DNA of 46,470 nucleotides from a virus. Below, piece by piece: positions 30,527 to 46,099 of the stretch. A model generated the notes under the pieces. That model was not told where the DNA came from and searched no databases. It was given only the letters and a program-made list of their open reading frames with translations. Position numbers and translations under genes: made by a program. Location of the stretch: IMG/VR virus record IMGVR_UViG_3300017917_002605, positions 1 through 46,470 of that record; one strand, 5' to 3'. The stretch's first letter is position 1; every line of letters starts with the position of its first letter.

Positions 30527-31633
30527 ATGAAAGTTAAAGCCGATTCAACCACAACCAAAGATGATTCAGGTGGAATCTCTGGTGCAGGCTCAGAAGTAAC
30601 GGCTCTGGCCGAATCATTGCAGGCCTATGCTTGTGCGACCAGACAGTTCCTTGGTAAACCACTTGAGGACGTTTCTCAGATTACAGATAAAACTATCGCT
30701 GATGCTGATTGCGACCGTACATTAAAACAATGTATGGCCGGTTTGGATGAACAGTGGTTCTACAGTGTGATTGATACCGCCAATGCCATTTTCAATGATG
30801 TGCCTGGTGCCAAGTCTGGTAAACAATATAAGTTTTATCGTGGTGGTAAATTCGTAGATTCCATCTATGACGAATGGAGAAAGTTTAAAAAGGGCAGCGG
30901 TATTACTGGTGATGACAAGTGGAATCCTGCCGATATTTGGATGGTAAAGAAGACACATAAACATCAGTATGGATTCAATACGCTTGTAGATTACAATCAT
31001 TACATGTATAATCTGTTTGCGAATGCTGAATGTATTGGTATTTCTTTGAAGAAGTTGGCAAAAGGTTCACATGCACACTCTAAGATTTTCAATGCAGGTA
31101 AACCTTTAACAGCACAATACAAAGGAATCAAGTTGGGTGCCAATATGACCGATTCAAAGGACATATACATTCAATATAGTTCAGAAGGTAAAGATGGTGA
31201 AGTTCAGTTGAGAAACTTTTCTTCAAGACCGGTGCCTTCATCTTGGCAAGGTGAGATTAAAGGTAAGGCAGCTGCAGGTGGTAAAATTGGCGGCGGCGTT
31301 ATCTTTGAAGGTGCTTTAGATGTTGGTGTTCGTTCATCTAGTTTGGTTCTACCAAGTAAAACACCTATTGATAAACCAAAAGATTCAGATTTCAAAGAGT
31401 TTGCAACCGCTTTTAAGAACCTAACTGGTTCAAAAGAAAAACTTGAAACTCTTATCGCTCAAGCAAAAGCTGGTCACAGACAAGACAAAACCTGGTGGAT
31501 GTCTAAGTATATTGGTGTCATGTTAGTTGATACGGTTCTAAAAGAAAGAAAAATGGATGCACTGTGTTCTTATATTTTCCAGTATGCATCCTCAGCAACA
31601 AAGAATAGTTGTATCTTCATAAAGTATAGTTAA
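30527..31633 (+). CDS. Unknown late protein, possible PD-(D/E)xK-like core
   Basis: 368 aa from ATG 30527 (a TTG 12 bp earlier lies in the hairpin). DDKWNPADIWMV followed about 40 residues later by CIGISLKKLAKG resembles the D...(E/S)xK arrangement of restriction-like nucleases; the flanking YKFYRGGKFVDSIYDEWRKF and NAGKPLTAQYKGIKLG are conserved-looking. The N-terminus (SGGISGAGSEVTALAESLQA) is low complexity. First gene of the late operon, two bases before the ligase-like gene. It might instead be structural. Confidence 0.55.
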   Translation: MKVKADSTTTKDDSGGISGAGSEVTALAESLQAYACATRQFLGKPLEDVSQITDKTIADADCDRTLKQCMAGLDEQWFYSVIDTANAIFNDVPGAKSGKQYKFYRGGKFVDSIYDEWRKFKKGSGITGDDKWNPADIWMVKKTHKHQYGFNTLVDYNHYMYNLFANAECIGISLKKLAKGSHAHSKIFNAGKPLTAQYKGIKLGANMTDSKDIYIQYSSEGKDGEVQLRNFSSRPVPSSWQGEIKGKAAAGGKIGGGVIFEGALDVGVRSSSLVLPSKTPIDKPKDSDFKEFATAFKNLTGSKEKLETLIAQAKAGHRQDKTWWMSKYIGVMLVDTVLKERKMDALCSYIFQYASSATKNSCIFIKYS

Positions 31634-31634
31634 T

Positions 31635-32867
31635 ATGAATTTTAAAGAATATCTAACGGAAGCAACCAAAGCTGGTAAGAACGTACACCTTGAACATATT
31701 GAGGATGAAGTTCTTAATCGTGGTGTAACTGGTGCTCGTGAAGCAATTAACTTTTTGCAGGCACTCAGAGATATGCTTGCTGGCCATTCAACAACCAAAG
31801 TGAATGTCACAACAAAATGGGACGGTGCACCTGCCATTTTCGCTGGCATTAATCCAGAGAATGGTAAATTCTTTGTTGGTACCAAGGGTGTCTTTGCTAA
31901 GAACGCAAAACTGAATTACACTGATGCTGATATCGATGCCAATCATCCTTCTGAAGGTCTGAATAAGAAACTCAAGGTTGCTTTGCGTTACCTGCCTAAG
32001 TTAGGTATCAAAGGTGTACTTCAAGGTGACATGATGTTCTCTAAGGGTGATATCGATAAACAAGTTATCGATGGTGTCTCCTACATTACGTTTCAACCAA
32101 ACACAATTGTATATGCTGTGCCTGCTGATTCTGCACTAGCACGTGCCATGTTAGATGCACAACTTGGTGTGGTGTTTCACACATCATACACTGGCAAAAC
32201 CATTGAAGACATGCAAGCATCTTTCAACATTGATATTGCACACCTGACCAAAACTAAAGACGTTTGGTTCCGTGATGCATCATTTATCGATGCGTCTGGT
32301 TCTGCCACATTTACTGAAGAAGAAACAAAACAACTTACAGGTATCTTGTCTGATGCTGGACGTTTGTTCAAACAAATAAATTCATTGACGATGAATAGAA
32401 TTCCTGCAAGTGAAGTTATTCAGACATATATCAAAACATTTAATAACACCAAGGTACGTTCAGGTGAGGCAATCAAAGACACACGTGCTCACACAGTACA
32501 GTTGATTTCTTGGGTTGAAACTAAATTAAACAAAGCAGTTGAAGAAGCAAAGAAAGCAGAGACAAAGAAAAAACGTATTGCTGAGAAGACAGAAATTATG
32601 CGTTTTTTCCGTTCTTATGCTGGCGATTTGAAACTCATATTTGATTTGCAAAATGACCTTGTTCGTGCAAAGAATATGATTATTAAGAAGTTGCAAGAAA
32701 TTAGACAAGTCACTGGCACATTCCTAAAAACTGAGAATGGTTTTAAAGTTACCAATCCAGAAGGATTTGTTGCAGTTGATAAATTAAAAGGTAACGCAGT
32801 TAAGTTGGTTGATAGAATGGAATTCAGTCAAGCAAACTTTAACGCACAGAAAGCATGGGACAAATAA
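31635..32867 (+). CDS. Ligase-like (KxDG) protein with capsid-targeting leader
   Basis: 410 aa. TTKWDGAPAIFAG (K61-W-D63-G64) followed by GKFFVGTKGVFAKN is the motif I and downstream strand pattern of covalent nucleotidyltransferases (RNA/DNA ligases); GVLQGDMMF and ITFQPNTIVYAV are candidates for motifs III and IIIa. I recall it as a family of T4-like marine phages (DUF6267). Residues 1-10, MNFKEYLTEA, closely resemble the T4 internal-protein leader MKTYQEFIAEA with an L-T-E cleavage site. The second half is helical and lysine-rich. If correct, an injected ligase-like enzyme; motif V is not evident. Confidence 0.6.
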   Translation: MNFKEYLTEATKAGKNVHLEHIEDEVLNRGVTGAREAINFLQALRDMLAGHSTTKVNVTTKWDGAPAIFAGINPENGKFFVGTKGVFAKNAKLNYTDADIDANHPSEGLNKKLKVALRYLPKLGIKGVLQGDMMFSKGDIDKQVIDGVSYITFQPNTIVYAVPADSALARAMLDAQLGVVFHTSYTGKTIEDMQASFNIDIAHLTKTKDVWFRDASFIDASGSATFTEEETKQLTGILSDAGRLFKQINSLTMNRIPASEVIQTYIKTFNNTKVRSGEAIKDTRAHTVQLISWVETKLNKAVEEAKKAETKKKRIAEKTEIMRFFRSYAGDLKLIFDLQNDLVRAKNMIIKKLQEIRQVTGTFLKTENGFKVTNPEGFVAVDKLKGNAVKLVDRMEFSQANFNAQKAWDK

Positions 32868-33148
32868 TGGCAGACGTAAAATTTGATATCAACGCCATCA
32901 TGGAAGAATATGGTGATGATGATTTTGGTTTCACCGCAGAATCGGAAGAAGAATTTGAGGCAGTTATTGCCGAGAAAGAAGAAACTGTAGAAGAATATAA
33001 ACAAAGACTTCAACAGGTTGAAAAGATTATTCTTCCTTTCCTTACAAAACTATTGAAGACTGCCGACCAACCAATCATCAAGTGGCCAAACCGTGGTCCT
33101 GTACTAGAGTCGCAGATTCAAAAGATTTTGAATTTGACCAGGGGATAA
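32867..33148 (+). CDS. Small acidic helical protein
   Basis: 93 aa from ATG 32867, overlapping the previous stop (TAATG). Acidic N-terminal half (NAIMEEYGDDDFGFTAESEE), then a coiled-coil helix (VEEYKQRLQQVEKIILPFLT) and a short basic end PIIKWPNRGPVLESQIQKIL. In T4-like marine phages a protein of this kind precedes virion genes; I cannot name a function. Late expression is implied by the promoter at 30492. Confidence 0.75.
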   Translation: MADVKFDINAIMEEYGDDDFGFTAESEEEFEAVIAEKEETVEEYKQRLQQVEKIILPFLTKLLKTADQPIIKWPNRGPVLESQIQKILNLTRG

Positions 33149-33149
33149 T

Positions 33150-33617
33150 ATGTTGCGTCAAGTAGATGGAAGATGGGCATTGGTTTCGAAGAAAACCGGT
33201 AGACCTTTAGCATATTATAAAGGCGAAGGCAAACCATCCGAAGAATGGGTGAAGAAACAAGAAGCCAGAATACAATTTTTCAAACATGGTGGTGTGTCTG
33301 AACAGATTAATGAGGCTGCATATGTTGGCAACATTGGTGCGATGGAAATGTTCAAGTTTTTCCAGAAAGCATCCGAAGAACAGAAAAAGAAATTAAAAAC
33401 ACTAATTGACGGACAGAAAACAAAAGAAGCCTGGAAATTGGTGCAAGATGTTACCGGCGTTAAGTTGCACAAGTCGGTACATGAAGAAGTTAAACCAGAT
33501 ATTCTCCCGAAATCAGGCGCTGGTGCGTGGGGCACCGATGAATTGGTGAATACATATAAGGATGCAACACCAGGTCAAGAAAGAAAGTTAAAGACTTTTA
33601 AAGAATTCCGTAAATAA
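33150..33617 (+). CDS. Late protein of unknown function with WALVSKKTGRPL motif
   Basis: 155 aa. The N-terminal WALVSKKTGRPLAYYKGEG, then KPSEEWVKKQEARIQFFKHG is a short basic module I associate with T4-like marine phage proteins (a substitute for a nucleic-acid-contact strand pair). The middle is a helical FKFFQKASEEQKKKLKTLID region and the end KLKTFKEFRK echoes the F-x-x-F leader motif of neighbouring proteins. The IRES-like start has no strong ribosome site; coupled to the previous gene by 1 bp. Confidence 0.75.
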   Translation: MLRQVDGRWALVSKKTGRPLAYYKGEGKPSEEWVKKQEARIQFFKHGGVSEQINEAAYVGNIGAMEMFKFFQKASEEQKKKLKTLIDGQKTKEAWKLVQDVTGVKLHKSVHEEVKPDILPKSGAGAWGTDELVNTYKDATPGQERKLKTFKEFRK

Positions 33618-33635
33618 TTTGTAAGTGAGGTTGTT

Positions 33636-34505
33636 ATGAAAGATATTGTGGTAGGGTGTATTACCAATTACACCTTTGATAAGATTGCCCCTTGGGTAAA
33701 TTCTCTTGAGCGAAGTGGTTTCGATGGCCTCAAGGTAATGATTTGTTACAACATTGGTTATGATGTTGTAGAAGAACTCACCAAACGTGGTTTCACCATT
33801 TTTGGTTTCAAACGAAACGATGAACAGAAACGCCTTGAATACAAGGACAATTTCAACATCTGTTTAGACCGTTTTTCCCATATTGCCTATTTCTTCAATC
33901 GTTTGGAGAACAAAGAGCAATATCGTTATGTGATTTCAACTGATGTTAAAGATGTAATTTTTCAAACCAATCCTTCTAGGTGGTTGGAAGAAAACATTGG
34001 TGATAAGAAGATTAATGTTGCTTCAGAATCATTGAGATATGTCGATGAAGACTGGGGTAATCACAATCTTTATCAATCTTTTGGACCTTTAATTTATGAA
34101 CGAAACAAAGACAACACCATTTACAATGCCGGCACTATCGCAGGAGAGTTTCAACATTTTGTGGACCTCTGTGATAACATCTTTCTTGCTTGCGGAGGAG
34201 CTCCGCAAAATGTACCAGGTGGCGGTGGACCAGACCAAGCAGCACTTAACGTTCTATTGAATCTGAGTGCATACAGAAACATAACCAACTTTGCACCAAG
34301 TGAATCTGGTTATGCAGCACAATTGGGTACAACTGCTGACCCAAATAAGATTACACAATTCAGACCAAAGTTATTGGAACCTGAACCAATTATTGATTAT
34401 GGAACCGGTGAAGTCAAAACCTCCACAGGAAAACTATTCAGTATTGTTCACCAATACGACCGAGTACCAAAACTAAAAGAAGTCATTGAGAAGAAATTCG
34501 CATGA
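33636..34505 (+). CDS. Glycosyltransferase-like protein
   Basis: 289 aa. DIVVGCITNYTFDKI at the start, RYVISTDVKDVIFQTNPSRW with a D-x-x-D motif (TDVKDV), and NAGTIAGEFQHFVDLCDNI fit the GT-A fold; GGGPDQAALNVLL is a late-helix signature seen in phage and bacterial relatives. First gene of the sugar cluster, starting GTTGTTATG. Substrate not known. Confidence 0.75.
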   Translation: MKDIVVGCITNYTFDKIAPWVNSLERSGFDGLKVMICYNIGYDVVEELTKRGFTIFGFKRNDEQKRLEYKDNFNICLDRFSHIAYFFNRLENKEQYRYVISTDVKDVIFQTNPSRWLEENIGDKKINVASESLRYVDEDWGNHNLYQSFGPLIYERNKDNTIYNAGTIAGEFQHFVDLCDNIFLACGGAPQNVPGGGGPDQAALNVLLNLSAYRNITNFAPSESGYAAQLGTTADPNKITQFRPKLLEPEPIIDYGTGEVKTSTGKLFSIVHQYDRVPKLKEVIEKKFA

Positions 34506-35122
34506 ACTTCAGTTTCGGTATAACAACCGATTATTCTGACCTGAATCGGTTGAATGAAATTAAAGAATCTATTCGTGGTTTGCAAATACCGAATTACGAG
34601 ATTCTAATAATTGGCGGCCAACATCCCGAAGATGAGGATGATACATGCCACATCTTCTTTGATGAGGCTGCCAAACCAAATTGGGTTACACGTAAAAAGA
34701 ATACATTGGCACAGGCCGCCAAGTATGATAACGTTGTTATCTTCCACGACTATTACGTGTTCGACAAAGACTGGTATCAAAACTTTCTAACATTCGGTGA
34801 AGATTGGGACGTTTGTTCTAATGCTCAACGGTTAATTACCGATAAGAGACATTTCACCGATTGGGTTTGTTGGGATTCACCAATCTTCCCACGTTATACA
34901 TCATTACATTATGATGACTGGTCACATACTAAGTATATGTATCAATCTGGTGGTTACATGATTGTCAAAAAGAAATTCATGGAGAAATGTCCAATGAATG
35001 AAGAAATGACATGGGGTACCGCCGAAGATGTTGAGTGGTCTTTGAGAATGAGAGAGATTGCCAACTGGAAATGTAATGGTAAATCTATAGTGAAACATAA
35101 TAAAAGGCATCGTGATGCATAA
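34502..35122 (+). CDS. Glycosyltransferase family 2-like protein
   Basis: 206 aa. FSFGITTDYSDLNRLNEIKE, PNYEILIIGG and NTLAQAAKYDNVVIFHDYYV (DYY in place of DxD) are the GT2 nucleotide-sugar side; MTWGTAEDVEWSLRMRE is the typical ED acceptor motif. Short for GT2 but complete in motif order. Overlaps both neighbours by 4-8 bp in the sugar cluster. Confidence 0.8.
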   Translation: MNFSFGITTDYSDLNRLNEIKESIRGLQIPNYEILIIGGQHPEDEDDTCHIFFDEAAKPNWVTRKKNTLAQAAKYDNVVIFHDYYVFDKDWYQNFLTFGEDWDVCSNAQRLITDKRHFTDWVCWDSPIFPRYTSLHYDDWSHTKYMYQSGGYMIVKKKFMEKCPMNEEMTWGTAEDVEWSLRMREIANWKCNGKSIVKHNKRHRDA

Positions 35123-36485
35123 GTTAATTATTTTTGACCTTGATGGTGTGTTGATTGAATCCCGTGAGTTGCATTATCATTCGCTGAATGAAGCACTCGC
35201 TAGAATTGATATGAAGTATGTCATATCACGTGAAGAACACCTTTCATTGTATGATGGTCTGAACACCACAAAGAAATTAGAAATGTTGGCGCAGAAAAAA
35301 GGTCTGCCCAATTCCTACTTCAATCAGATTTGGCAAGACAAACAAACTGCCACATTCAAACTGATTAGACAGATTCCAAAAAACAATAACCTGAGGCAAA
35401 TGTTTGCAAACATTCAATCAAAAGGTTGGAAGATTGCAGTTGCCAGTAACTCCATTCGTGAAACGGTAAAGTTGGCATTATTGTCGATTGGTGTCATGGA
35501 ATATGTTGATTACTATGTCAGTAATGAGGATGTAAAGAGAACCAAACCTTACCCCGAAATGTACTGGCAATGTATGACGGCATTAAATGCACTTCCAAAA
35601 AGTACAATTATCGTGGAAGATAGTCATATTGGACGCCAAGGTGCAACCGATTCTGGCGCACATCTTTTGCCTGTCGAAAACGCAAATGACTTGACTTCAT
35701 ATAAAGTTTTGTGTAAAATACAAGAGATTGAAGAAAAAGAACACCACCATCATATACCATGGAGAGATAATAAATTGAACGTACTTATTCCTATGGCAGG
35801 TGCTGGCTCACGTTTTGCACAAGCCGGTTACACCTTCCCTAAACCCCTGATTGAAGTCAGAGGCAAACCTATGATTCAGGTAGTTGTAGAGAACCTGAAC
35901 ATTCAGGCAAATTATATTTTCTTGGTTCAAAAAGAACACTATGAGAAATACAACCTGAAATATCTACTTAATCTGATTGCACCAAACTGTAAGATTGTAC
36001 AGGTTGATGGTGTGACAGAAGGTGCTGCTTGCACCACATTGTTGGCAAAAGAATTGATTGACAACGACCAACCATTGGTTATGGCAAACTCTGACCAGTT
36101 TATCGAATGGGATTCCAACAATGTCATGTATTCGTTCCAAGCGGATGGTATTGACGGTGGCATTCTAACATTTAAAGCAACACATCCAAAGTGGTCGTAT
36201 GCCAAGTTAGATGAAAACGGTTTCGTCAGTGAAGTTGCAGAAAAGAAACCAATCTCCGATAATGCGACCGTTGGTGTTTATTACTGGAAGAAAGGTTCTG
36301 ATTACGTTAAGTATGCAGAACAAATGATTGAAAAGAACATTCGTGTAAACAACGAATTCTATGTTTGTCCTGTTTTCAACGAAGCGATTGCTGATGGCAA
36401 GAAAATTCGTGTGAAACAAATTGAGAGAATGTGGGGCATTGGTACTCCAGAAGACCTCAACTATTTCTTGGAGAACCACAAATGA
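35115..36485 (+). CDS. HAD hydrolase fused to sugar-nucleotidyltransferase
   Basis: 456 aa from ATG 35115 (GTG 35112 also possible). Residues 1-205: HAD phosphatase with FDLDGVL (D8, D10), VASNS and VEDSHIGRQGA. From ~217: nucleotidyltransferase with LIPMAGAGSRFAQAGYTFPK and PLIEVRGKPMIQ, then VMANSDQFIEW (metal D) and VGVYYWKKG. It could dephosphorylate and nucleotide-activate a sugar in one chain. Such fusions occur in bacterial capsule or glycan clusters. The linker (EIEEKEHHHHIPWRDN) is visible. Confidence 0.85.
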   Translation: MHKLIIFDLDGVLIESRELHYHSLNEALARIDMKYVISREEHLSLYDGLNTTKKLEMLAQKKGLPNSYFNQIWQDKQTATFKLIRQIPKNNNLRQMFANIQSKGWKIAVASNSIRETVKLALLSIGVMEYVDYYVSNEDVKRTKPYPEMYWQCMTALNALPKSTIIVEDSHIGRQGATDSGAHLLPVENANDLTSYKVLCKIQEIEEKEHHHHIPWRDNKLNVLIPMAGAGSRFAQAGYTFPKPLIEVRGKPMIQVVVENLNIQANYIFLVQKEHYEKYNLKYLLNLIAPNCKIVQVDGVTEGAACTTLLAKELIDNDQPLVMANSDQFIEWDSNNVMYSFQADGIDGGILTFKATHPKWSYAKLDENGFVSEVAEKKPISDNATVGVYYWKKGSDYVKYAEQMIEKNIRVNNEFYVCPVFNEAIADGKKIRVKQIERMWGIGTPEDLNYFLENHK

Positions 36486-37255
36486 ATAACAATATGACAG
36501 AAGAAAAGATTCAACAATATGCCGCAATGGCCAAGGCATTTATGAATCGACCAATTGGCCATCCTAACAACGTAGTAGGCAACTACGGATGGCATGAAAA
36601 ATATCCTTATGAAAAATACCTTCTTACTAGACCTTCTGATGAAAGTAAAACCGTGGTTCCAACCAATCAGTCTTTACTTGCTGTTGATTTTGGTTGTGGG
36701 CCTGGCCGCATGGTCAATCGTATGTCTAAGCTCTTCAAACGAGTTGATGGCATTGACGTATCCTCCTATGCGTTAGAATGGGCTCGCAAACAATTTCCAG
36801 AAAACAATTTCTATGAAGCCAGTGGTGCAGATTGTGGTGATGTTCCTGCAAACACTTATGATTTTGTTTACAACACTATTTCAATTCAACACATTCCCTG
36901 TCGTACTATTCGACAAAGAATTTATGAAGGACTATATCGTTGCATGAAAAAAGGTGCATCAATCACCTTGCAACTGGCATATAATCCAACATATGTTGCT
37001 GGTGTTTGGTCAAATGATACCGAACATGCATCATATGAATCCGACTTCTTTGATACCGACAAAACTAACGGTCATGCTGATTGTGTAATTAATGAAAAAG
37101 ATTTGCCTTTGCTGCAATCAGATTTTGAAAAAGTAGGTTTCAAAAATGTAGAGATTCGATTAGCTGAAGTTGCTAGTTTATATCCGAACCTAGAAGGTGA
37201 ATATCACGCACCTTATTGGGCTTCTCATTGGTTGTTTATTTACGGAAACAAATAA
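36482..37255 (+). CDS. SAM-dependent methyltransferase (class I)
   Basis: 257 aa from ATG 36482. The SAM motif LLAVDFGCGPGRMVNRMSKL and VDGIDVSSYALEWARKQF match the Rossmann methyltransferase core, with YDFVYNTISIQHIP as motif IV region. The enzyme lies within the sugar cluster, so it may methylate a sugar, but protein or small-molecule substrates are possible. Overlaps the HAD fusion by 4 bp. Confidence 0.88.
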   Translation: MNNNMTEEKIQQYAAMAKAFMNRPIGHPNNVVGNYGWHEKYPYEKYLLTRPSDESKTVVPTNQSLLAVDFGCGPGRMVNRMSKLFKRVDGIDVSSYALEWARKQFPENNFYEASGADCGDVPANTYDFVYNTISIQHIPCRTIRQRIYEGLYRCMKKGASITLQLAYNPTYVAGVWSNDTEHASYESDFFDTDKTNGHADCVINEKDLPLLQSDFEKVGFKNVEIRLAEVASLYPNLEGEYHAPYWASHWLFIYGNK

Positions 37256-37256
37256 C

Positions 37257-38039
37257 ATGCAAGTATGGATTTTGACGTTTAATCGTCCTGTTGTATTGAA
37301 CAGACAGATTAAAACATTTGGTGAACTTGGTTATGATGTTCATATCTTTTCCAATTATCCTGAAGTAGAAATTTACGCAGAGAATAAAGATTACATCAAA
37401 GAAGTATTCTTTAATAACCTATCTGACCCTGAGGCAAATTCTTATTGTGCTAGGTCATGGAACAATATCTTCATCAAATGTTTCAAGACCGAACAAGAGG
37501 CAATCTTTGTACAGGATGATACATGGTGCAGACCAGAGATTGGTAAACTAATCGAGGAAAACAAAGATAAGTTTGACCTGATTTGGGGACCTGCTGGCGA
37601 TACATTCTTCTACATGAAGAAAAGTGTTCTTGCAACCATTGGTTGGTTTGATGAGCGTTATCTTGCTTGTTATTGTGGTGATGCTGACTTCCTGAAACGT
37701 GCATGGCATTTTTATGATAAAGATAGATTGTCTATTGCTGAGACACACGATTGGGGATGGTTTCATAATGATGTAGGAATTCGTAATCATATTTCTTGGG
37801 ATTTACGTTCTAAATGTTTAGATGATAATTATGTAAATCAACATCAAGAAAATGAAGCCAAAATTGGTTCCTCAAACTACATGTTAGTACACTCACAAGG
37901 ACACTTTAAGAATAAATGGGCCACACCAGGTAATGGTATTAACGGTATTGGTCCTATTTGTTTATATGAAGAAGCACCACAGGTTGCAGAAATTGATTGG
38001 TATCCTTGGTTTACTAAAAAATATTTGAGAGGTGAATGA
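37257..38039 (+). CDS. Glycosyltransferase-like protein
   Basis: 260 aa from ATG 37257. VWILTFNRPVVLNRQIKTFG and the YDVHIFSNYPEV segment form a GT2-type start; AIFVQDDTWCRPEIG gives the D-D-x motif and GWFDERYLACYCGDADFLKR the acceptor-side D-x-D. A C-terminal YVNQHQENEAKIGSSNYML region is phage-specific. No precise family. Next to methyltransferase and GDPD-like genes. Confidence 0.8.
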   Translation: MQVWILTFNRPVVLNRQIKTFGELGYDVHIFSNYPEVEIYAENKDYIKEVFFNNLSDPEANSYCARSWNNIFIKCFKTEQEAIFVQDDTWCRPEIGKLIEENKDKFDLIWGPAGDTFFYMKKSVLATIGWFDERYLACYCGDADFLKRAWHFYDKDRLSIAETHDWGWFHNDVGIRNHISWDLRSKCLDDNYVNQHQENEAKIGSSNYMLVHSQGHFKNKWATPGNGINGIGPICLYEEAPQVAEIDWYPWFTKKYLRGE

Positions 38040-38500
38040 TGCGTATTATCGCACATAGGGGATTAATCAACGGTGCCGATAAGGCATTTGAGAATAGACC
38101 AGAAACTATCGAACTTGCATTTGATAATGATTTTGATGCAGAGATTGATATCTGGCGTGAAGATGGTGAATGGTTTCTAGGACATGATGAGCCACAATAT
38201 CCAGTAGATTCTGCTTGGATTATGTCGGCAGCACCACGAGCTTGGTTTCATTGTAAGAACTCAGAAGCAATGTTGTGGATGGCCAATCATTCCAAAGGTG
38301 TTAATTTCTTTTGGCACGATAGTGATGACTATACCCTCACCAGTACCGGATATGTGTGGGCATATCCAGGTTCTAAAGTTGAAGGCAATACGATTTTAGT
38401 TTTGCCAGAACGTATTATGAAAATTGAAGAAATTAAAAACATTCACTGTTATGGTGTTTGTACAGACTTTGCTATGCAAGCCAGAGAGGCACTTAAATGA
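38036..38500 (+). CDS. Glycerophosphodiester phosphodiesterase-like protein
   Basis: 154 aa. IIAHRGLINGADKAFENRPE, TIELAFDNDFDAEIDIWRED and FLGHDEPQY reproduce the opening half of GDPD enzymes (HRG, EN, E-x-D, HD). The full TIM barrel normally needs about 240 aa, so this may be a compact form of the family, and the downstream metal and barrel part is reduced. It could act on a phosphodiester-linked glycan. Overlaps neighbouring genes by 4 bp. Confidence 0.75.
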   Translation: MMRIIAHRGLINGADKAFENRPETIELAFDNDFDAEIDIWREDGEWFLGHDEPQYPVDSAWIMSAAPRAWFHCKNSEAMLWMANHSKGVNFFWHDSDDYTLTSTGYVWAYPGSKVEGNTILVLPERIMKIEEIKNIHCYGVCTDFAMQAREALK

Positions 38501-39459
38501 AAATTTGTTTTGTTGTTCACCGATATGCACCATTTCCTGGTGGTTCTGAATACTATGTCCAACAGATGGCGGAAGAATGTGTTCAGAGACACCATGATGT
38601 AACTGTTATTGCTGGTGAACACAAAGGTGATTTGAATGGTGTTCGTGTAACAAGTGACGCACATTATTTGAATGACCAAGATTTGGTTGTAGTTCACGGC
38701 GGTGATGTTGGCGTACAGAACTTTGTTTTGTCACATGCAAGACATATAAACTCACCTGTCTTGTATATGATTATCAAACCGTCCGATAGTCAAGTATGCG
38801 TTCAGGCATTACATGACTGTGAATTCATTGGTTGTTCCGCACCCGAGGATTGGGACCATGTACGTAAACATGGCGTGGAAAATAAGGCACATAAAGTAAT
38901 TCACGGTATTTCTCCTGTTGATTGTATCGGCAAAAAAGGCAGATTCAAACACCAGTACGGTATTCCTGCCGACAAACGCATGTTTCTATCTTGCGGTGGG
39001 TATTGGCCGAACAAAAAGATGATTGAACTTGCCAAGGCATTTGAGTCCGCAAACCTAGAGGACAGTATCTTAGTCACAACTGGTTACGATAATCGATTCG
39101 GTATCATGCCTCATGCGTCCGAGAAGGTCTTTCCTTTGATGGTCGATGACCCTAAGGATGTCAAGGATGCGATTGCCGATGCCGATTGTTATGTGATGAA
39201 CTCGGATGCCGAAGGTTTTGGTCTGGTAATCCTAGAATCTATGATTAACAAGACACCTTGGATTTCTCGAAATATCGCTGGTGCCAAACTTTTGGCTGAA
39301 CATGGCCAAGTGTACAATACAGAAGATGAATTGGTTGAATTATTGCGTGGTTTCAAAAGAAACGACACCAAAGTTAAAACTGCTTACGAATACGTAATTC
39401 AGAACCACCTAATCAAGAACACGGTCGATGATATTCTAGCTCTAATAAATACTAAATAA
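38497..39459 (+). CDS. Glycosyltransferase family 4-type protein
   Basis: 320 aa GT-B fold. MKICFVVHRYAPFPGGSEYY is the classic GT4 N-terminus; FLSCGGYWPNKKMIELAKAF and SDAEGFGLVILESMINKTPW contain the E-x(7)-E donor site motif. This is the last gene of the sugar cluster; its stop codon overlaps a late promoter element. Donor sugar unknown. Confidence 0.9.
   Translation: MKICFVVHRYAPFPGGSEYYVQQMAEECVQRHHDVTVIAGEHKGDLNGVRVTSDAHYLNDQDLVVVHGGDVGVQNFVLSHARHINSPVLYMIIKPSDSQVCVQALHDCEFIGCSAPEDWDHVRKHGVENKAHKVIHGISPVDCIGKKGRFKHQYGIPADKRMFLSCGGYWPNKKMIELAKAFESANLEDSILVTTGYDNRFGIMPHASEKVFPLMVDDPKDVKDAIADADCYVMNSDAEGFGLVILESMINKTPWISRNIAGAKLLAEHGQVYNTEDELVELLRGFKRNDTKVKTAYEYVIQNHLIKNTVDDILALINTK
39445..39458 (+). 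promoter_or_regulatory. Tandem late promoter elements
   Basis: ATAAATA (39445-39451, within AATAAATAC) and CTAAATA (39452-39458) are directly adjacent, 33-46 bp before ATG 39492. Either could be the gp55 -10 element for the second late operon. Confidence 0.7.
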
Positions 39460-39491
39460 CATATAAACTTTAACTGCTGTAGAGGCGGGGT

Positions 39492-41924
39492 ATGAAATTT
39501 AGAGATTTTATTAGAGAAGAAAAGGAAAAGCATGCCGTCCTGGCTTTCGGACGCATGAATCCACCAACAACAGGACATGAGGTCCTGGTCAATAAAGTCA
39601 AAGAGGTAGCAAGACAAAACAACGCATCACACCATGTTGTGCTATCTCACTCACAAGACAAAGCAAAGAATCCTCTAACACCCTCACAAAAGGCATTACA
39701 TGCCAGACGATTCTTTCCTGGTACCAATATCACATTGGCTACCAAAGAACATCCAAACTTTCTAACTCAGGCACAAAAGTTACATCAAAAAGGTGTAACT
39801 CATTTACACATGGTTGCTGGTTCTGACCGTGTTCCTGAGTATGATAAACTGTTAAAGAAATACAACGGCACACATGAAGGTGCCTTGTTTAATTTCAAAT
39901 CAATCAAAGTACATAATGCAGGCGAACGTGACCCTGATGCCGATGACACAAGTGGCATGTCTGCATCAAAAATGCGTGGTCATGCGGCTGCATCCAACTT
40001 TAAAGAATTCAAAAAAGGTATTCCTTCTCACGTACCGGAACATCATGCAAGAGAATTGTATGACCATGTTCGTAGAGGTATGGGTATTCGTGAAAACATG
40101 GATTTCACATTACCAATGGATGAAGAAGTTGCACAACTATTGTATGAAGGTGTGCATGATAAAGGTATCTTTAAGGCAGTATTCTTAGCAGGTGGTCCAG
40201 GTTCTGGCAAAGATTATGTATTGGACAACACACTTGCTGGTCATGGCTTGACAGAAATCAATTCCGACAAGGCACTAGAGTTTTTGATGGACAAACACGG
40301 TCTTGATAAGACCATGCCTCCTTCTGAACAAGAGAAACGTGATTACATTCGTGGTCGTGCAAAGAACATTACTGAATTGCGCCAGCGTTTGGCTCTACTA
40401 GGTCGTAATGGTCTTATCATCAATGGTACTGGTGATGATGTTGAAAAATATAAGAAGATTAAAGAACGACTAGAAGAAATCGGTTACGAAACTTCAATGG
40501 TTTCTGTTGTGACTGATGATGAAGTTTCTCGTCAGCGTAATATTGAACGTGGTCAACGTGGTGGTCGTTCAGTGCCTGAAGAAATTCGTAAAGCAAAATG
40601 GGATGCAGTTACCAAAGCACGTGCTGAAATGGCAAAGATGTTTGGTGATAACTATGTAGAGTTTGACAACTCACAAGATTTACGTACTGCTGACCCTGAA
40701 ACAGTCAAAGCCAAAAAAGATGAAATGCTTGGTATATTCAAGCGTGTTAAATCTTTTGTTGAAACACCACCATCTACCGAAAAGTCTCAGGCCTGGGTTG
40801 CACAAGAACTGAGTAAAAAAGACAATACGCTTGTTTCAGATGAAGATGCTGAAAAACATCCTCATCCAGATAATGAATCTTCTCAGCAAGCTCGCCAATT
40901 AGGTTTGACATATTATGGATTCGGCCGTTGGGGTAAAAACGGAGAGGTCACTCACCATTCCGTACATGGTCAACTGGTTGCAATACAAAAAGAAAAAATT
41001 AAAGATGTGAGTGTGCCTATCGATGGTTCATCACAGAAACCACCAGTTACCGTTAAGAAGGTAACAGCAAAGAACGCTACAATGAAAACAGAAAGCCTCG
41101 ACCATGAGTTTGAAAGTTTCTTAACTGAAGCAGTAACCATTACAGTTAAGGCTGACACAGCTGAAGAAGCTGCAAAAGCAGTCAAACTATTATCTAACGA
41201 ACCTGATGAACAAGAAGAAGTTGAAGAAGAAGTACAAGACGGTTTCTCTGATTTGACCGCCAAACAACTTCTAACTTTGAATCAAACATTCGGCGTTCAA
41301 GCAGAATCAAAAGACAACAAGAAACACATCTTCCCTTCCGAACATCTATTGAAAGATTCAAACGGTAAAGTGCGTGTGTTTATGATGCGCCGTGCTGCAG
41401 CAGCAGAAGCACACCAAAAAGGTGGCCAGGTGCAAAAATCAGGAAATGGTTATGTCGTTAAATTAAAGGAGGATACTCATGTTACAAGCGTTAATCAATC
41501 TGTTCAAGAGAAAACAACCACAAGTGCAGGAAGCACCGTACAAAGTGGAAGTGGAACAACCAGTTCAGGAAGTCTCATTACCGAAAGTAGAGACTCCGGT
41601 TGTGGTTGCGGCTGTGGAGGAGCAGAAGCCAGTTGCCAAGAAAAAGGCACCGGCAAAAAGAAAACCATCGCAGAAGTCAAAGCCAGTTGGTCAAAAGAAA
41701 AAGCAGTAAAAGAATCTATTGACAAAGGCATCGAACCAGGTCTTTCGATGGCAACTTCTGGTGAAAATTTGGTGCGTGGTGCAACAAAGAATAAACCAAA
41801 AGAAAAACCATTAGAAGAAATGCAGGGTGATGAAACCACCGCTTCAATTGGTGACCAAAAAGAAGATGAATTAAAGAAGAAAGGCATTAGTCTTTCATCA
41901 TTTAAAAAGAGAAATTACGTATGA
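39492..41924 (+). CDS. NadR-like adenylyltransferase-kinase fusion with capsid-targeting leader
   Basis: 810 aa. Leader MKFRDFIREE resembles the T4 internal-protein leader, with I-R-E. Domain 1 is an HxGH-superfamily nucleotidyltransferase: AVLAFGRMNPPTTGHEVLV (TGH 27-29) and SGMSASKMR (154-162). Domain 2 (from ~225) is a P-loop kinase: GGPGSGK (234-240), NGLIINGTGDD and RNIERGQRGGRSV, like zeta-toxin/nucleoside kinases. NadR has this NMNAT plus kinase order, but the substrate is unproven. Residues 540-547 FESFLTEA repeat the leader motif, so the C-terminal region may be released. That region is low complexity (CGCGCGG) and contains an overlapping gene. Confidence 0.75.
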   Translation: MKFRDFIREEKEKHAVLAFGRMNPPTTGHEVLVNKVKEVARQNNASHHVVLSHSQDKAKNPLTPSQKALHARRFFPGTNITLATKEHPNFLTQAQKLHQKGVTHLHMVAGSDRVPEYDKLLKKYNGTHEGALFNFKSIKVHNAGERDPDADDTSGMSASKMRGHAAASNFKEFKKGIPSHVPEHHARELYDHVRRGMGIRENMDFTLPMDEEVAQLLYEGVHDKGIFKAVFLAGGPGSGKDYVLDNTLAGHGLTEINSDKALEFLMDKHGLDKTMPPSEQEKRDYIRGRAKNITELRQRLALLGRNGLIINGTGDDVEKYKKIKERLEEIGYETSMVSVVTDDEVSRQRNIERGQRGGRSVPEEIRKAKWDAVTKARAEMAKMFGDNYVEFDNSQDLRTADPETVKAKKDEMLGIFKRVKSFVETPPSTEKSQAWVAQELSKKDNTLVSDEDAEKHPHPDNESSQQARQLGLTYYGFGRWGKNGEVTHHSVHGQLVAIQKEKIKDVSVPIDGSSQKPPVTVKKVTAKNATMKTESLDHEFESFLTEAVTITVKADTAEEAAKAVKLLSNEPDEQEEVEEEVQDGFSDLTAKQLLTLNQTFGVQAESKDNKKHIFPSEHLLKDSNGKVRVFMMRRAAAAEAHQKGGQVQKSGNGYVVKLKEDTHVTSVNQSVQEKTTTSAGSTVQSGSGTTSSGSLITESRDSGCGCGCGGAEASCQEKGTGKKKTIAEVKASWSKEKAVKESIDKGIEPGLSMATSGENLVRGATKNKPKEKPLEEMQGDETTASIGDQKEDELKKKGISLSSFKKRNYV
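41465..41709 (+). CDS. 76-aa lysine-rich protein encoded inside the previous gene (+1 frame)
   Basis: ATG 41479 is preceded by AAAGGAGG (41465-41472) with 6-nt spacing, the strongest Shine-Dalgarno in the window; the coding part is 41479-41709. The product starts with an amphipathic MLQALINLFKRKQPQ, has a V/P/E-rich middle and ends in KKKAPAKRKPSQKSKPVGQK, a very basic, histone-like tail. The main frame over the same bases is S/T/G-rich low-complexity sequence, which suggests this frame is the constrained one. A small nucleic-acid-binding protein is plausible. Confidence 0.65.
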
Positions 41925-42652
41925 AATCATTTAAACAATTTGTAAACGAAGACCTGCGTAAATGGTTCGATAAAGACCATCCTGAAGGTGGTTGGAAAAG
42001 AATTAATAGTAAAGGTGAGGCAATCGGTCCTTGCGCCAGAGAACCTGGTGAGCCAAAACCTAAATGCATGTCTAACGAAAAACGTGCTCAGTTGAGTAAG
42101 AAAGAACGTGCATCAGCAGTCGCAGCAAAACGCAGACACGACCCAAATCCAGAGAGAAAAGGTGAACCCATTAATGTTTCCAATTATGGAAAAGGAAAGA
42201 TTAGTGAAGACCAAGAATATCTTGAAGAAAAGAACGTACCAACAAGTCCTGAAAAATGGGCAAGAGCAAAGGCAATGGCAAAGGCTAAATTCGATGTTTA
42301 TCCTTCTGCTTATGCAAATGGTTGGGCTGCAAAGAAATATAAAGAAATGGGCGGCGGTTGGAAATCTGTATCGGAAGAAGTTGAAAATGTCGAAGAAGAT
42401 TGGCAAAAGGTCAACAAGTCCGATAGAACAGATGGTATGTCACAAAAGGCAGTTGATGCCTATCGCCGTGAAAATCCAGGTTCAAAACTAAAGACCGCTG
42501 TTACAGAAAAGAATCCTACTGGTAAACGTGCATCACGTAGAAAATCATTCTGCGCTCGTATGTCAGGTATGAAACGTGCTCATGCAAGTCCAGAAACTAA
42601 GCGTGACCCAGATTCACCAATTAATAAAGCTCTACGCCGTTGGAGATGCTAA
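41921..42652 (+). CDS. Basic DUF6321-like head-associated protein with capsid-targeting leader
   Basis: 243 aa. Leader MKSFKQFVNED has V-N-E. LRKWFDKDHPEGGWKRINSK, CAREPGEPKPKCMS is the module I recall as DUF6321; EKWARAKAMAKAKFDVYPSA, YANGWAAKKYKE a second module (DUF5872-like); the C-terminal half (DWQKVNKSDRTDGMSQK, SFCARMSGMKRAHASPETKR) looks like a diverged repeat of the first. Highly basic, so DNA contact within the capsid is reasonable. Overlaps the previous gene by 4 bp. Confidence 0.75.
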   Translation: MKSFKQFVNEDLRKWFDKDHPEGGWKRINSKGEAIGPCAREPGEPKPKCMSNEKRAQLSKKERASAVAAKRRHDPNPERKGEPINVSNYGKGKISEDQEYLEEKNVPTSPEKWARAKAMAKAKFDVYPSAYANGWAAKKYKEMGGGWKSVSEEVENVEEDWQKVNKSDRTDGMSQKAVDAYRRENPGSKLKTAVTEKNPTGKRASRRKSFCARMSGMKRAHASPETKRDPDSPINKALRRWRC

Positions 42653-43954
42653 GTGGCACAGTTTAGAACCGATTATATGAAATTGGATTCTGGTCAAGTA
42701 GTGACCAGATATGAAGTGTTTGGTTTAATGGAAACATTAACACCTTCCGGTTCGCTCGTGGATGCGTTTGGTCGTTTACGCACATCAAATCCAAAATCCA
42801 TATTCATGTCACAAAATGTTGGTGCAGAAGATGGCAAGTTTGATACCAAACTAACAGGTAATGCTAATACTGTTTATGTTGCCACAGAAAGTACCGTCTA
42901 TATGAATGTTGGTACAACTTCTGGTGATGAAGTTATTCGTCAATCAAAGGCCAGCATTCCTTATCAGCCAGGCAAGTCATCACAAGCGATGATTTCTTTT
43001 GTGATGGACACACCAAAAGCCAACCTCACACAAAGAGTTGGTTACTTTGATGAAAGTAATGGTGTTTACTTGGAGAGCGATGGTGTAAATTATAATTTTG
43101 TTTTGCGTTCAAACACAACAGGCACCATTGTTGAAACAAGAGTTCCACAAAGTCAATGGAATGTTGATAAGTTTGATGGTTCCGGTTATGCATATCAAGG
43201 CAATACCGATGTAAATAACAACTTACTTGACCTAACAAAGGGTAACATCCTTTGGATGGATTTTGAATGGTTGGGTGTTGGTGATGTACGTTGTGGTTTT
43301 GTTGTTGATGGAATTCCTTATGTTGCTCATATTTTCCATAACGACAATCATAAAACGTCCGTTTATATGACAACTGCTTGTTTGCATATAAGACAAGAGA
43401 TAAGAAATATAGGACCAACAACAAGTAATTCTAAATTAAAGCAAATCTGCTCAGCTGTTATGTCTGAGGGTGATTTTAATGTCCAAGGTAAGATTGAAGG
43501 TTGTGGTAGAGGATTCACGATTGCTGCGGCCGACACACTTGTTAGTGCAGGCACAGATTATCCAATGATTGCTTTCAGATTGAAATCTGGGAGACAAAAC
43601 AATATTGTTATTCCTCATTCTTTTCACGTTTATGTGGATTCAAATGCCACAGTATCATATAGAATTTGGAGAAATGCGACTGTAACTGGTGGCACATGGG
43701 AATCAAGAGATGCTGCAAGTCCTGTTGAATTTAATGTTGGTGTTACTGCAATGGACACAACAAACGCCGAAATTATCCAAGGTGGTTTTGTTACTGGTGG
43801 TCAAACAGTTGCGTTTGGTACTGGACTAGATAACCTTGATTATACATTAAGACACTTTTTAAACAATACTAGCGAAAACTATGTGTTGTCTTTAATACCA
43901 ACGAACAACAACATAAAGGTTTTATCAAAAGCCGACTGGATGCTTATTATCTAA
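42653..43954 (+). CDS. Virion structural protein (beta-rich)
   Basis: 433 aa. GTG start at 42653 directly after the previous stop (ATG 42677 is an alternative). LVDAFGRLRTSNPKSIF near residue 40 is a motif I associate with virion proteins of T4-like marine phages; the rest is repetitive beta sequence rich in T, G and N (YVATESTVYMNVGTTSGDEV, GYFDESNGVYLESDGVNYNF). It may be a fibre, decoration or tail protein; the exact position is not clear. Confidence 0.75.
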   Translation: MAQFRTDYMKLDSGQVVTRYEVFGLMETLTPSGSLVDAFGRLRTSNPKSIFMSQNVGAEDGKFDTKLTGNANTVYVATESTVYMNVGTTSGDEVIRQSKASIPYQPGKSSQAMISFVMDTPKANLTQRVGYFDESNGVYLESDGVNYNFVLRSNTTGTIVETRVPQSQWNVDKFDGSGYAYQGNTDVNNNLLDLTKGNILWMDFEWLGVGDVRCGFVVDGIPYVAHIFHNDNHKTSVYMTTACLHIRQEIRNIGPTTSNSKLKQICSAVMSEGDFNVQGKIEGCGRGFTIAAADTLVSAGTDYPMIAFRLKSGRQNNIVIPHSFHVYVDSNATVSYRIWRNATVTGGTWESRDAASPVEFNVGVTAMDTTNAEIIQGGFVTGGQTVAFGTGLDNLDYTLRHFLNNTSENYVLSLIPTNNNIKVLSKADWMLII

Positions 43955-43971
43955 TAACTTAGGAGAAAAAC

Positions 43972-44634
43972 ATGGGTAAGATGGAAGAAGAACTAAAGGG
44001 CAATCAACACAAGATTGACAAAAACAAGAACAACAAAATCGATTCACACGATTTTGCCATTCTACGTGGTGAAAAGAAAGCCATGAAACAAGAAGAAGTT
44101 GAACAGATTCAGGAATATGAATCTAAAGATGGTGTTTATCGCCATCAGGCCAAACAAGGTCGTTATGGTGGTTCCGAGAAACCAGTAGATTCTCTTGCTG
44201 GTGTTCGTGGTCCTGCTAAGTCTGACCTAGAAAAGATTGAAGCTGCCAAAAAGAAAAAGAAGTTTTCTGAAATGGTAGAAATTTACAAACAAGAAGGTAT
44301 CAAAGGCTTGTTTGAAGAATTGCGTGTTGTTGAAGAAGAAGCTTCACAAGAAGAATTCAACAAAGAGATAGAAAAACAAAAGAGAAAAGCTTCTGGTACT
44401 GCTACCGAAGCCGAAAAGGCTGATGTTGCTGCACCTGCAACCAAAGGTACAAAAGAAGTAAAAGAAGAAGTTGAGCAGATTGAAGAACGTGAGCTGACCG
44501 ATGCAGAAGCCAAGAAAAAAGAAGAAATCGTTAAAGGCATGAAAAAAGGCATTTCTGGTTTCAAAGAACGTTACGGTGAACGTGCAAAAGAAGTCATGTA
44601 TGCAACCGCTACTGCAAGAGCTAAGGGTGAGTAA
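43972..44634 (+). CDS. Charged protein with EF-hand-like loop
   Basis: 220 aa. HKIDKNKNNKIDSHDFAIL has a full EF-hand/dockerin-type calcium loop (D-x-N-x-N-x-K-I-D-x-x-D). The rest is highly charged helix (KSDLEKIEAAKKKKKFSEMV, EEFNKEIEKQKRKA) with two EEVEQI(Q/E)E motifs (positions ~41 and ~165). Similar proteins exist in T4-like marine phages. A strong ribosome site TTAGGAGAAAAAC precedes ATG 43972. Confidence 0.75.
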   Translation: MGKMEEELKGNQHKIDKNKNNKIDSHDFAILRGEKKAMKQEEVEQIQEYESKDGVYRHQAKQGRYGGSEKPVDSLAGVRGPAKSDLEKIEAAKKKKKFSEMVEIYKQEGIKGLFEELRVVEEEASQEEFNKEIEKQKRKASGTATEAEKADVAAPATKGTKEVKEEVEQIEERELTDAEAKKKEEIVKGMKKGISGFKERYGERAKEVMYATATARAKGE

Positions 44635-45396
44635 ATGAAAAATTTTGCTGGTCTTTTTGAGCAATTAAAACAAAAGCCAAAAGCTCGTGAAGCCAAGGAA
44701 GGCAGATTCAAATCTGCCCCTGCTCGTCACCCCTATACACCTGAACCTTTGGCCACACCAAGAGTTAATGAAGCTGAAGATATTTCAGGTGAACAAGGTG
44801 TGCATAAAGGCCAGTACAAATTTAAAAAGAAACCACAGGATATAGGTCTTCCACGTTCGGAAGCACCTATCATTCCTGAAGAAGTCGAACAGATTGAAGA
44901 AATCTCCAAACAACTGGCCACTGGTTATATGCATTCCGCAATCAGTGATAGAGCTCGCACAGATAAAAAAGTTTCTGATGCAATGGAGAAACAAAGAAGT
45001 TCATGGTCAAAAGTTCGTCATAAAAATATTACAAAAATGATGGATAAATCACAAAAGCGCACACAAGGAATTAGTATGGCACTAAGTAGAGTACAAAAAG
45101 AAGAAGTCGAAAAGAAAAAAGATGACGTTCCTTTTGACCCACCATACACAAAAAAGAAATCAGCTGTTGCTGGTAAACACGGACAAGGATATTCCACCGC
45201 TCGTCATCTTGCTAGACAAGCGATGGAAAAGTATAAGAAGAAACCTGTAAAGGAATCTCTACAAGAATCTCGCAAAGCAGAGATTGTGAAACAAGCATCT
45301 AAAGACGCTAAGAAGAAAGCTATGGAAAAGGTTAATTCTGACAAGTTTCAACCTGAACCTACTTTAGATAGCGAAATTATTAAAACAAATAATTGA
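44635..45396 (+). CDS. Basic head-associated protein with EEVEQIEE motif
   Basis: 253 aa, start ATG 44635 right after the previous stop. The leader MKNFAGLFEQLK is a weaker match to the capsid-targeting pattern (L-F-E). A proline/basic linker is followed by EEVEQIEEISKQLATGYMHS, a motif shared with the previous protein, then K/R-rich helices (KVRHKNITKMMDKSQKRTQG, ARHLARQAMEKYKKKPVKES). Likely packaged or scaffold-related; no enzyme motif. Confidence 0.7.
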   Translation: MKNFAGLFEQLKQKPKAREAKEGRFKSAPARHPYTPEPLATPRVNEAEDISGEQGVHKGQYKFKKKPQDIGLPRSEAPIIPEEVEQIEEISKQLATGYMHSAISDRARTDKKVSDAMEKQRSSWSKVRHKNITKMMDKSQKRTQGISMALSRVQKEEVEKKKDDVPFDPPYTKKKSAVAGKHGQGYSTARHLARQAMEKYKKKPVKESLQESRKAEIVKQASKDAKKKAMEKVNSDKFQPEPTLDSEIIKTNN

Positions 45397-45397
45397 A

Positions 45398-45404
45398 ATA
45401 AATA
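45398..45404 (+). promoter_or_regulatory. Late promoter element
   Basis: ATAAATA within AATAAATAC, 24 bp before the ATG at 45429. Strong ribosome site TTTAGGAGAAAATAA follows. Probably the promoter of the decoration-like gene. Confidence 0.7.
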
Positions 45405-45428
45405 CCTTAAACTTTTAGGAGAAAATAA

Positions 45429-45764
45429 ATGGCTCTATGGTCAAATACAGATGCTAACACCTCTGCACCAAAATTTGCAGTTGCAGGCGGTTACGGCGTT
45501 TCAGCGAACGGTAAAACACTTTTCAACACCAACACCGCAATCGGTCTAAACGGTACAGGTAATGTATCTGTTATGGGTGTTGATACCACAGAACAGCGTG
45601 TCGCTGGTAACCCTAAGGGTGGCCACGCAGGTTGGGTTTTGGTCAAACGTGGTACCGGTGGTCGTGCTGGCCGCATTCAAGTAGAAACATTGGTAGCAAT
45701 GGGTTCTATGACCGGTGACGGTGATGCAGTCGCTAATGATGACCCAACATTCGCTGATGCCTGA
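45429..45764 (+). CDS. Small virion protein (decoration-like)
   Basis: 111 aa. MALWSNTDANTSAPKFAVAG and GGHAGWVLVKRGTGGRAGRI, QVETLVAMGSMTGDGDA match a family I recall as abundant in T4-like marine phage genomes and possibly head-associated. It is glycine/asparagine/threonine-rich and neutral, as in capsid decoration proteins. It has its own late element and a very strong ribosome site, consistent with high copy number. Confidence 0.8.
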   Translation: MALWSNTDANTSAPKFAVAGGYGVSANGKTLFNTNTAIGLNGTGNVSVMGVDTTEQRVAGNPKGGHAGWVLVKRGTGGRAGRIQVETLVAMGSMTGDGDAVANDDPTFADA

Positions 45765-46099
45765 TGATTACGTTTAATAACTACCTGGTCGAATCTGAAC
45801 ACCTCGACCAGGTGAATGACCAACTCAGTCAAAAGTTAGACAATTTTGTGTCTTCTTTATCTGGTGCCTTTGAGATTCTAATAGAAACCCTAAGTGCTGC
45901 TGGCCTTTCTTTCGAATTGTCAGAATATGATGAAGAAGGCGATGAACTTGTCTTTGACTTGAATTCCGGTGAAACATCAACCGGCTTATTTTTGTATGTA
46001 ATTTATTATCGAACCGATGATGGTCAATATGACTTCTACGCCGAAGTAACGGATGAAGAAGGATTGGATGAACTAATGTCGGAGGATGAAGACGAATAA
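45764..46099 (+). CDS. Small acidic protein with capsid-targeting-like leader
   Basis: 111 aa. Leader MITFNNYLVESE has the F-x-x-Y-L-x-E pattern (L-V-E). Helical NDQLSQKLDNFVSSLSGAFE, then a beta section FELSEYDEEGDELVFDL and YVIYYRTDDGQYDFYAEV; strongly acidic end (ELMSEDEDE). The overlap TGATG with the previous stop supports ATG 45764. Function unknown. Confidence 0.7.
   Translation: MITFNNYLVESEHLDQVNDQLSQKLDNFVSSLSGAFEILIETLSAAGLSFELSEYDEEGDELVFDLNSGETSTGLFLYVIYYRTDDGQYDFYAEVTDEEGLDELMSEDEDE

What the first reader, a model, noticed from the sequence alone, without database searches (positions are those of the whole stretch)
31635..46099. A set of late proteins carries T4-like capsid-targeting leaders, suggesting an injected cargo
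Seen: starts MNFKEYLTEA (31635), MKFRDFIREE (39492), MKSFKQFVNED (41921), MITFNNYLVES (45764) and weaker MKNFAGLFEQ (44635) share M-x(1,2)-F-x-x-(F/Y)-(L/I/V)-x-E. Known: T4 internal proteins IPI-IPIII begin MKTYQEFIAEA, which directs them into the prohead and is cut by gp21 after (L/I)-x-E. Inference: these unrelated proteins, including two enzyme-like ones, are packed in the head, matured by cleavage and delivered into the host with the DNA.
Basis: partly seen in the sequence, partly recalled or inferred. Interest (0 to 1): 0.87.

Follow-up and report, generated by a model that had tools for sequence, protein, structure and literature searches.

The report
Head-packing tags on phage enzymes
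Several unrelated proteins of this T4-like virus begin with the short tag that phage T4 uses to load proteins into its head, and relatives of one of them (an NAD-making enzyme) have been found in purified particles of related phages, so the virus probably carries ready-made, protease-trimmed enzymes along with its DNA.

Summary
Four ORFs (31635, 39492, 41921, 45764) match the leader exactly; 0.02-0.03 were expected among about 200 genes. A fifth (44635) is weaker. The genome also encodes a gp21 protease, a gp22-type scaffold and a gp23 with an IAE|A site.

In homologues the leader keeps the residues that matter in T4 (two aromatics, L/I, E) and is predicted to be unstructured.

Best test: in phage S-CREM2 the motif marks 3 of 219 genes; all three are non-structural enzymes detected in purified virions, one an NMNAT-like relative of 39492. 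S-SCSM1 and S-SZBM1 each have a tagged, virion-detected NMNAT-like protein. Examples from phages without a T4-type head lack the tag. Misfits: three small tagged proteins went undetected, and S-CREM1 ORF157 has no tag.

New here: the 39492 protein has NadR domain order (NMNAT, then kinase) and carries similar sites between domains. In phage HTVC008M the kinase is a separate gene that starts at that site. In relatives, module borders carry L/I/V-x-E in 37 of 41 contexts (background 18%). I read these as cargo polyproteins cut by the prohead protease. Packaging is supported for the NMNAT family only; cleavage and injection are inferred.

The parts
31635..32867 (+). DUF6267 protein, 410 aa, with leader MNFKEYLTE|A (leader codons 31635-31661)
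   Evidence: Pfam DUF6267 E 8e-111; 74 of 79 complete homologues keep the strict leader; residues 1-14 have model confidence below 50 while the model mean is 83.5
39492..41924 (+). NMNAT + P-loop kinase + C-terminal modules, 810 aa, with leader MKFRDFIRE|E (leader codons 39492-39518)
   Evidence: PHROG cytidyltransferase E 6e-66, Pfam Zeta_toxin/AAA_33; fold matches NadR, adenylate kinase, NadD; leader conserved
40122..40151 (+). Interdomain site EEVAQLLYE|G between NMNAT and kinase (residues 211-220)
   Evidence: E and G invariant in 21 homologues; low-confidence stretch 201-222; in HTVC008M the kinase is a separate gene starting MIPFILKE|GLYD
41109..41132 (+). Internal leader-like site FESFLTE|A (residues 540-547)
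   Evidence: recurs in many homologues; in low-confidence stretch 501-550
41577..41588 (+). Third candidate site LITE|S in a low-complexity linker (residues 696-699)
   Evidence: tails of homologues hold 68 [LI]xE[ASGD] sites against 26 +/- 4.6 in shuffles
41921..42652 (+). 243-aa protein: leader MKSFKQFVNE|D, DLRxWF module, YPSAYANGW module, DUF6321 (leader codons 41921-41950)
   Evidence: Pfam DUF6321 E 1.5e-12; the same modules sit behind leaders or L/I-x-E sites in relatives
42200..42211 (+). Candidate module-border site ISE|D (residues 94-97) in the 41921 protein
   Evidence: downstream border of the DLRxWF module carries such a site in 20 of 20 contexts
42653..43954 (+). Virion structural protein next to the tagged gene
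   Evidence: PHROG 1645, head and packaging, E 5.5e-97
44635..45396 (+). Weaker leader MKNFAGLFE|Q on a 253-aa protein that also holds EEVEQIEE
   Evidence: does not match the strict motif
45764..46099 (+). 111-aa acidic protein with leader MITFNNYLVE|S; least supported of the four
   Evidence: no match in the phage collection and only distant IMG/VR matches that begin at residue 15 or later
39440..39470 (+). Late-promoter-like elements upstream of 39492 (CTAATAAATACTAAATAACAT); approximate span
   Evidence: TAAATA upstream of 16/55 genes of the structural region against 2/68 mid-genome genes

Best explanation
The leaders are T4-type capsid-targeting and processing signals. Late in infection the tagged proteins dock on the scaffold core of the prohead, the gp21-type protease cuts after L/I/V-x-E, the leader is lost, and the enzyme stays in the head and presumably leaves with the DNA at the next infection. 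In the 39492 protein (NMNAT, kinase, small modules), and less surely in 41921, the same kind of site recurs between domains, so these are probably cargo polyproteins split by the same protease. Shown here: the leader, its conservation, the protease and scaffold genes, agreement with virion proteomes of relatives, and enrichment of sites at module borders. Inferred: docking, every cleavage, ejection and activity in the host. My estimates: targeting 0.85 for the 39492 family, N-terminal cleavage 0.75, internal cleavage 0.6, injection 0.55.
For: 4 exact leaders against 0.02-0.03 expected. gp21, scaffold and gp23 in the genome. The regex on T4 finds ipII, ipIII, gp61.1 and one start inside uvsW. 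T4 residues needed for targeting and processing (4, 7, 8, 10; PMC9026906) are the ones conserved. Leader not part of the predicted fold. S-CREM2: 3 of 219 genes carry the motif and all 3 are virion-detected non-structural enzymes; over three phages 5 of 8 motif genes are detected, 1.4 expected, P about 0.006. No leader in two podophage DUF6321 proteins or in the virion NMNAT of non-T4 S-CBWM1. Internal sites and module borders.
Against: No cleaved peptide has been observed. Three small tagged proteins were not detected in virions, and S-CREM1 ORF157, predicted by me to have the leader, does not. An NMNAT can be found in a virion preparation without the leader (S-CBWM1). The S-SZBM1 enzyme is of low abundance (emPAI 0.26, portal 2.83), and the authors of PMC10665884 themselves allow that such enzymes are carry-over. 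The S-SZBM1 DUF6267 homologue (gene 141) is not in its virion list. Module borders were chosen after inspection and are related by descent.
Confidence: 0.75

Rival explanations
1. The leader targets the proteins to the prohead, but they are core or head-structural proteins, largely broken up or kept in the head, and not cargo that acts in the host.
For: T4 gp22, gp67 and gp68 are cut at many L/I-x-E sites and mostly removed (PMC9026906). 43972, 44635 and the gp68-position protein share EEVEx[IL]xE elements.
Against: 39492 has intact enzyme folds with invariant active-site-like residues. Tagged proteins in S-CREM2 include a SAM lyase and a kinase, detected with 19 and 21 unique peptides.
Confidence: 0.15
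2. The virion detections are carry-over of abundant late proteins, and the leader does something else, for example forming an N-terminal helix that helps folding or complex formation.
For: Authors of the proteome papers allow for carry-over. Low abundance in S-SZBM1.
Against: Carry-over would not track an N-terminal motif, yet all 3 motif genes of S-CREM2 are detected. The motif ends in a small residue after E in 68 of 69 DUF6267 leaders and recurs at domain borders.
Confidence: 0.08
3. Chance resemblance among unrelated N-termini.
For: The motif is short and was noticed after the fact.
Against: 4 observed against 0.02-0.12 expected; pattern kept by homologues at 31-34% identity (MLSFKSFLTEES, MKSFVNFLTEAA); agreement with proteome data not used to define it.
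Confidence: 0.02

Closest known systems
T4 internal proteins IPI, IPII, IPIII with capsid-targeting sequence, cut by gp21
   Same: Leader length and key positions, L/I-x-E followed by a small residue, one leader on unrelated bodies, a gp21 homologue in the genome
   Different: Bodies here are larger and enzyme-like, and one carries repeated internal sites. T4 IPs are small proteins, shown to inhibit type IV restriction enzymes (PMC12373910)
T4 Alt, a head-packaged and injected ADP-ribosyltransferase
   Same: An enzyme packed in the head and processed by gp21, also at its C-terminus (PMC9026906)
   Different: Different enzyme class; the Alt start (MELITELFDED) does not match the strict motif
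Cyanophage virion-associated NMNAT / cytidylyltransferase
   Same: Same protein family by tblastn for several of them; detected in virions of S-SM1, S-SCSM1, S-SZBM1 and S-CREM2
   Different: Those reports proposed no targeting signal in the passages read; the window protein adds a kinase and further modules
Polyvalent proteins of phages and plasmids (PMC5512222)
   Same: Multidomain proteins thought to be injected and split by a protease
   Different: Those are linked to zincin-like peptidase or MuF domains; none was found here, and the splitting protease proposed here is the prohead protease
SPN3US / phiKZ head proteins cut by their prohead protease
   Same: Head proteins with propeptides removed by a prohead protease, long ones by several cuts (PMC10052503)
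   Different: Long propeptides there; short leaders and interdomain sites here

Membership tests
T4 capsid-targeted internal proteins | Short N-terminal leader with two spaced aromatics, then L/I/V-x-E | tested here: met
   Exact in 4 ORFs; conserved in families 31635 and 39492; weak evidence for 45764
T4 capsid-targeted internal proteins | Same leader on unrelated bodies | tested here: met
   DUF6267, NMNAT-kinase, DUF6321 and an acidic protein; 12 body clusters among leader ORFs of IMG/VR loci
T4 capsid-targeted internal proteins | Genome encodes gp21-type protease and scaffold core | tested here: met
   Peptidase_S77 and PHROG 207, scaffold PHROG 237
T4 capsid-targeted internal proteins | Present in the virion | tested here: inconclusive
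   No proteome of this virus. NMNAT-family relatives with the leader are in virions of three phages; no such evidence for 31635, 41921 or 45764
T4 capsid-targeted internal proteins | Leader removed by the prohead protease | not testable with these tools
   Sites are conserved, but no semi-tryptic data were available
T4 capsid-targeted internal proteins | Ejected into the host with the DNA | not testable with these tools
   Needs experiment
Polyvalent proteins | Embedded peptidase (zincin) or virion MuF domain | tested here: not met
   Pfam finds only Zeta_toxin/AAA_33 in the 39492 protein and nothing in its C-terminal part
NadR-type NMNAT plus ribosylnicotinamide kinase | NMNAT domain followed by a P-loop kinase domain | tested here: met
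   Foldseek match to NadR 6gyf, E 7e-8 over 451 columns, but TM-scores of 0.14 and 0.27 mean the relative placement of domains is not matched; kinase substrate unknown
DNA/RNA ligase-like nucleotidyltransferases (for DUF6267) | KxDG and later ligase motifs within the adenylation fold | tested here: inconclusive
   K61 and G64 invariant, D63 at least 90%, E376, G377 and K390 invariant; fold search not significant, with ligase adenylation domains recurring only among weak hits

The most novel reading that the evidence does not exclude
T4-like phages of the kind sampled here build cargo polyproteins: interchangeable modules, each bounded by the prohead-protease site and led by one capsid-targeting signal, so that a single gene loads several separate proteins, including an NAD-making enzyme, into the head. 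Fused genes keep former leaders as internal cutting sites.
Probability: 0.45. Interest if true: 0.84.

Novelty: new variant of a known kind. Interest (0 to 1): 0.7.

Why it matters
Cyanophage proteome papers found NMNAT-like and other enzymes in virions and could not say whether they were cargo or carry-over. A leader that coincides with these enzymes suggests a mechanism and a quick way to predict injected proteins in an abundant phage group. If the polyprotein reading is right, it is a way to deliver several proteins from one gene. In the open library searched here the only paper holding both 'cyanophage' and 'capsid targeting' is a T4 review that, in the passages read, does not connect them. 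Subscription literature was not searched.

Tried and rejected
Chance origin was rejected. A sequence search of solved structures for DUF6267 gave nothing and Foldseek nothing significant, so its ligase-like reading stays a lead. S-CREM1 ORF157, a virion 'lipase', was predicted to carry the leader before I looked and does not; it lies beside tail genes. The probability of 2e-10 that non-structural virion enzymes carry the motif is not used as evidence: I chose that class after reading the papers and left out endolysin-like enzymes as probable tail parts; with those four included the count is 5 of 10. The P value for pooled module borders is also not relied on, because the borders were picked after inspection and the contexts are related by descent. 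The DUF6267 scan used the leader as one of six seeds; none of the homologues analysed contains that exact peptide, but a bias towards close relatives remains. In one search, F3 and E9 are fixed in the ungapped set by the way it was selected; only the other positions are informative there. Some NMNAT homologues counted as lacking the leader have doubtful starts.
Full report
What the window is. It is the first 46,470 bases of a 168,911-base virus record. At DNA level only short stretches match T4-like cyanophages and a Vibrio phage. The far end of the record holds head genes in T4 order: portal, a gp67-like gene, 163290, a basic gene, a small gene, gp21 (Peptidase_S77, E 1e-34), scaffold (PHROG 237) and a gp23 with IAE|A after residue 52.

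The observation. The relaxed regex on the whole T4 genome finds ipII, ipIII, gp61.1 and one start inside uvsW, so it is a specific detector, though it misses IPI and Alt. Work on T4 IPIII puts targeting mainly at residues 4 and 7 and processing at 8 and 10 (PMC9026906); these are the positions shared here.

Conservation. Of 79 complete DUF6267 homologues 74 keep the relaxed-strict motif. In the ungapped set position 6 is F or Y, 7 is L or I, the residue after the glutamate is S, A or G in 68 of 69, and residues 11-16 vary. Homologues at 31-34% identity still begin MLSFKSFLTEES and MKSFVNFLTEAA. Of 52 NMNAT homologues 38 keep the motif; several others insert one residue yet keep L-x-E. AlphaFold gives residues 1-10 of DUF6267 a confidence of about 30 in a model of mean 83.5: conserved but not part of the fold, as expected of a signal.

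Independent test. I compared the motif with published virion proteomes. In S-CREM2 (52 virion proteins of 219) it hits three genes, SAM hydrolase, APH-like kinase and cytidylyltransferase; all are detected and all were called non-structural by the authors. A further such protein, annotated as Cas9-like, has FASFMAE|A at residues 19-25. In S-SCSM1 the motif hits the NMNAT (detected) and a 106-aa protein (not detected); in S-SZBM1 the cytidylyltransferase (detected) and two small proteins (not detected). Together 5 of 8 are detected where 1.4 are expected, P about 0.006. Cases without a T4-type head: the DUF6321 proteins of HTVC100P and P-SCSP1o and the virion NMNAT of S-CBWM1 have no leader, and 99 kb of S-CBWM1 gave no hit. 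This is a handful of controls, and S-CBWM1 also shows that detection in a virion does not need the leader. One guess failed: S-CREM1 ORF157 has no leader.

Repeated sites. In the 39492 protein the motif recurs between domains: an x-E|G with invariant E and G, usually preceded by [LI], between NMNAT and kinase, and F-E-x-F-L-x-E|A further on, in stretches of low model confidence. In HTVC008M the kinase is its own gene and begins MIPFILKE|GLYD, the same site at an N-terminus. In relatives, the borders of the DLRxWF, YPSAYANGW, DUF6321 and TITVKADT modules carry [LIV]xE in 37 of 41 non-redundant contexts, against 18% of other 14-mers in the same proteins. The DLRxWF module appears both behind a leader (41921) and inside an NMNAT polyprotein (L146), with such sites on both sides. 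C-terminal tails of NMNAT homologues hold 68 [LI]xE[ASGD] sites against 26 in shuffles; the enzyme part has a smaller excess, 36 against 24.

What the cargo may do. By fold the 39492 protein matches NadR, adenylate kinases and NadD. Phage pathways that restore NAD after NAD-depleting defences exist (PMC12774641), so an injected NAD-making enzyme is a reasonable but untested idea. The emPAI of the S-SZBM1 homologue (0.26, against 2.83 for the portal) suggests few copies per particle, which speaks against bulk NAD supply. DUF6267 has invariant residues that resemble ligase motifs, without significant fold support.

Expression. TAAATA-type late-promoter elements are enriched before genes of the structural region (16/55 against 2/68 mid-genome), and one precedes 39492, in line with late synthesis.

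Verdict. The leader is real and of T4 type, and is best read as capsid targeting. Packaging of the NMNAT family is supported by others' proteomics. For the other tagged proteins of the window, and for cleavage, the polyprotein step and injection, direct evidence is still missing.

Noticed in passing
L186 (T4 NC_000866) 18966-19130 minus; T4 114210 plus (in L188): T4 gp61.1 (MKTFKEFIKED) and an in-frame start inside the annotated uvsW gene (MLLEFKQFLYEAS) match the leader regex; possible unrecognised T4 head proteins.
   Followed up: no
L007:16820-17545 (record 163290-164015): Gene between the gp67-like and the next core gene has a leader MKSLQDFKSTTISEA resembling that of T4 IPI.
   Followed up: partly
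29366-30481: Pfam DruA (Druantia defence protein) match above cut-off, 36.4 bits against 27, just upstream of the DUF6267 region.
   Followed up: no
33636-39459: A block of ORFs that look, from their translations, like sugar-transferase, nucleotidyltransferase, HAD and methyltransferase genes separates DUF6267 from the NMNAT gene; in S-SZBM1 the two genes are adjacent.
   Followed up: no
L190:42283-42612: Small leader-bearing cyanophage family (MKSYKQFLSESVNIAGDFNG...) found in 135 phage records with alignments from residue 1; next to a virion structural gene in S-SZBM1.
   Followed up: partly
43972-44634: EF-hand-like loop (DKNKNNKIDSHDF; weak Pfam match) and two EEVEQI-x-E elements, which recur in 44635 and resemble sites in the gp68-position protein and gp21.
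   Followed up: partly
L168:17194-18252, L167:12203-13288, L072:3172-4239; window 30527-31633: In HTVC008M and Melnitz-3 a 350-360-aa gene just upstream of DUF6267, and a similar-length gene in L072, carry leader-like starts; the window ORF in that position does not. Homology was judged from position and length only.
   Followed up: no
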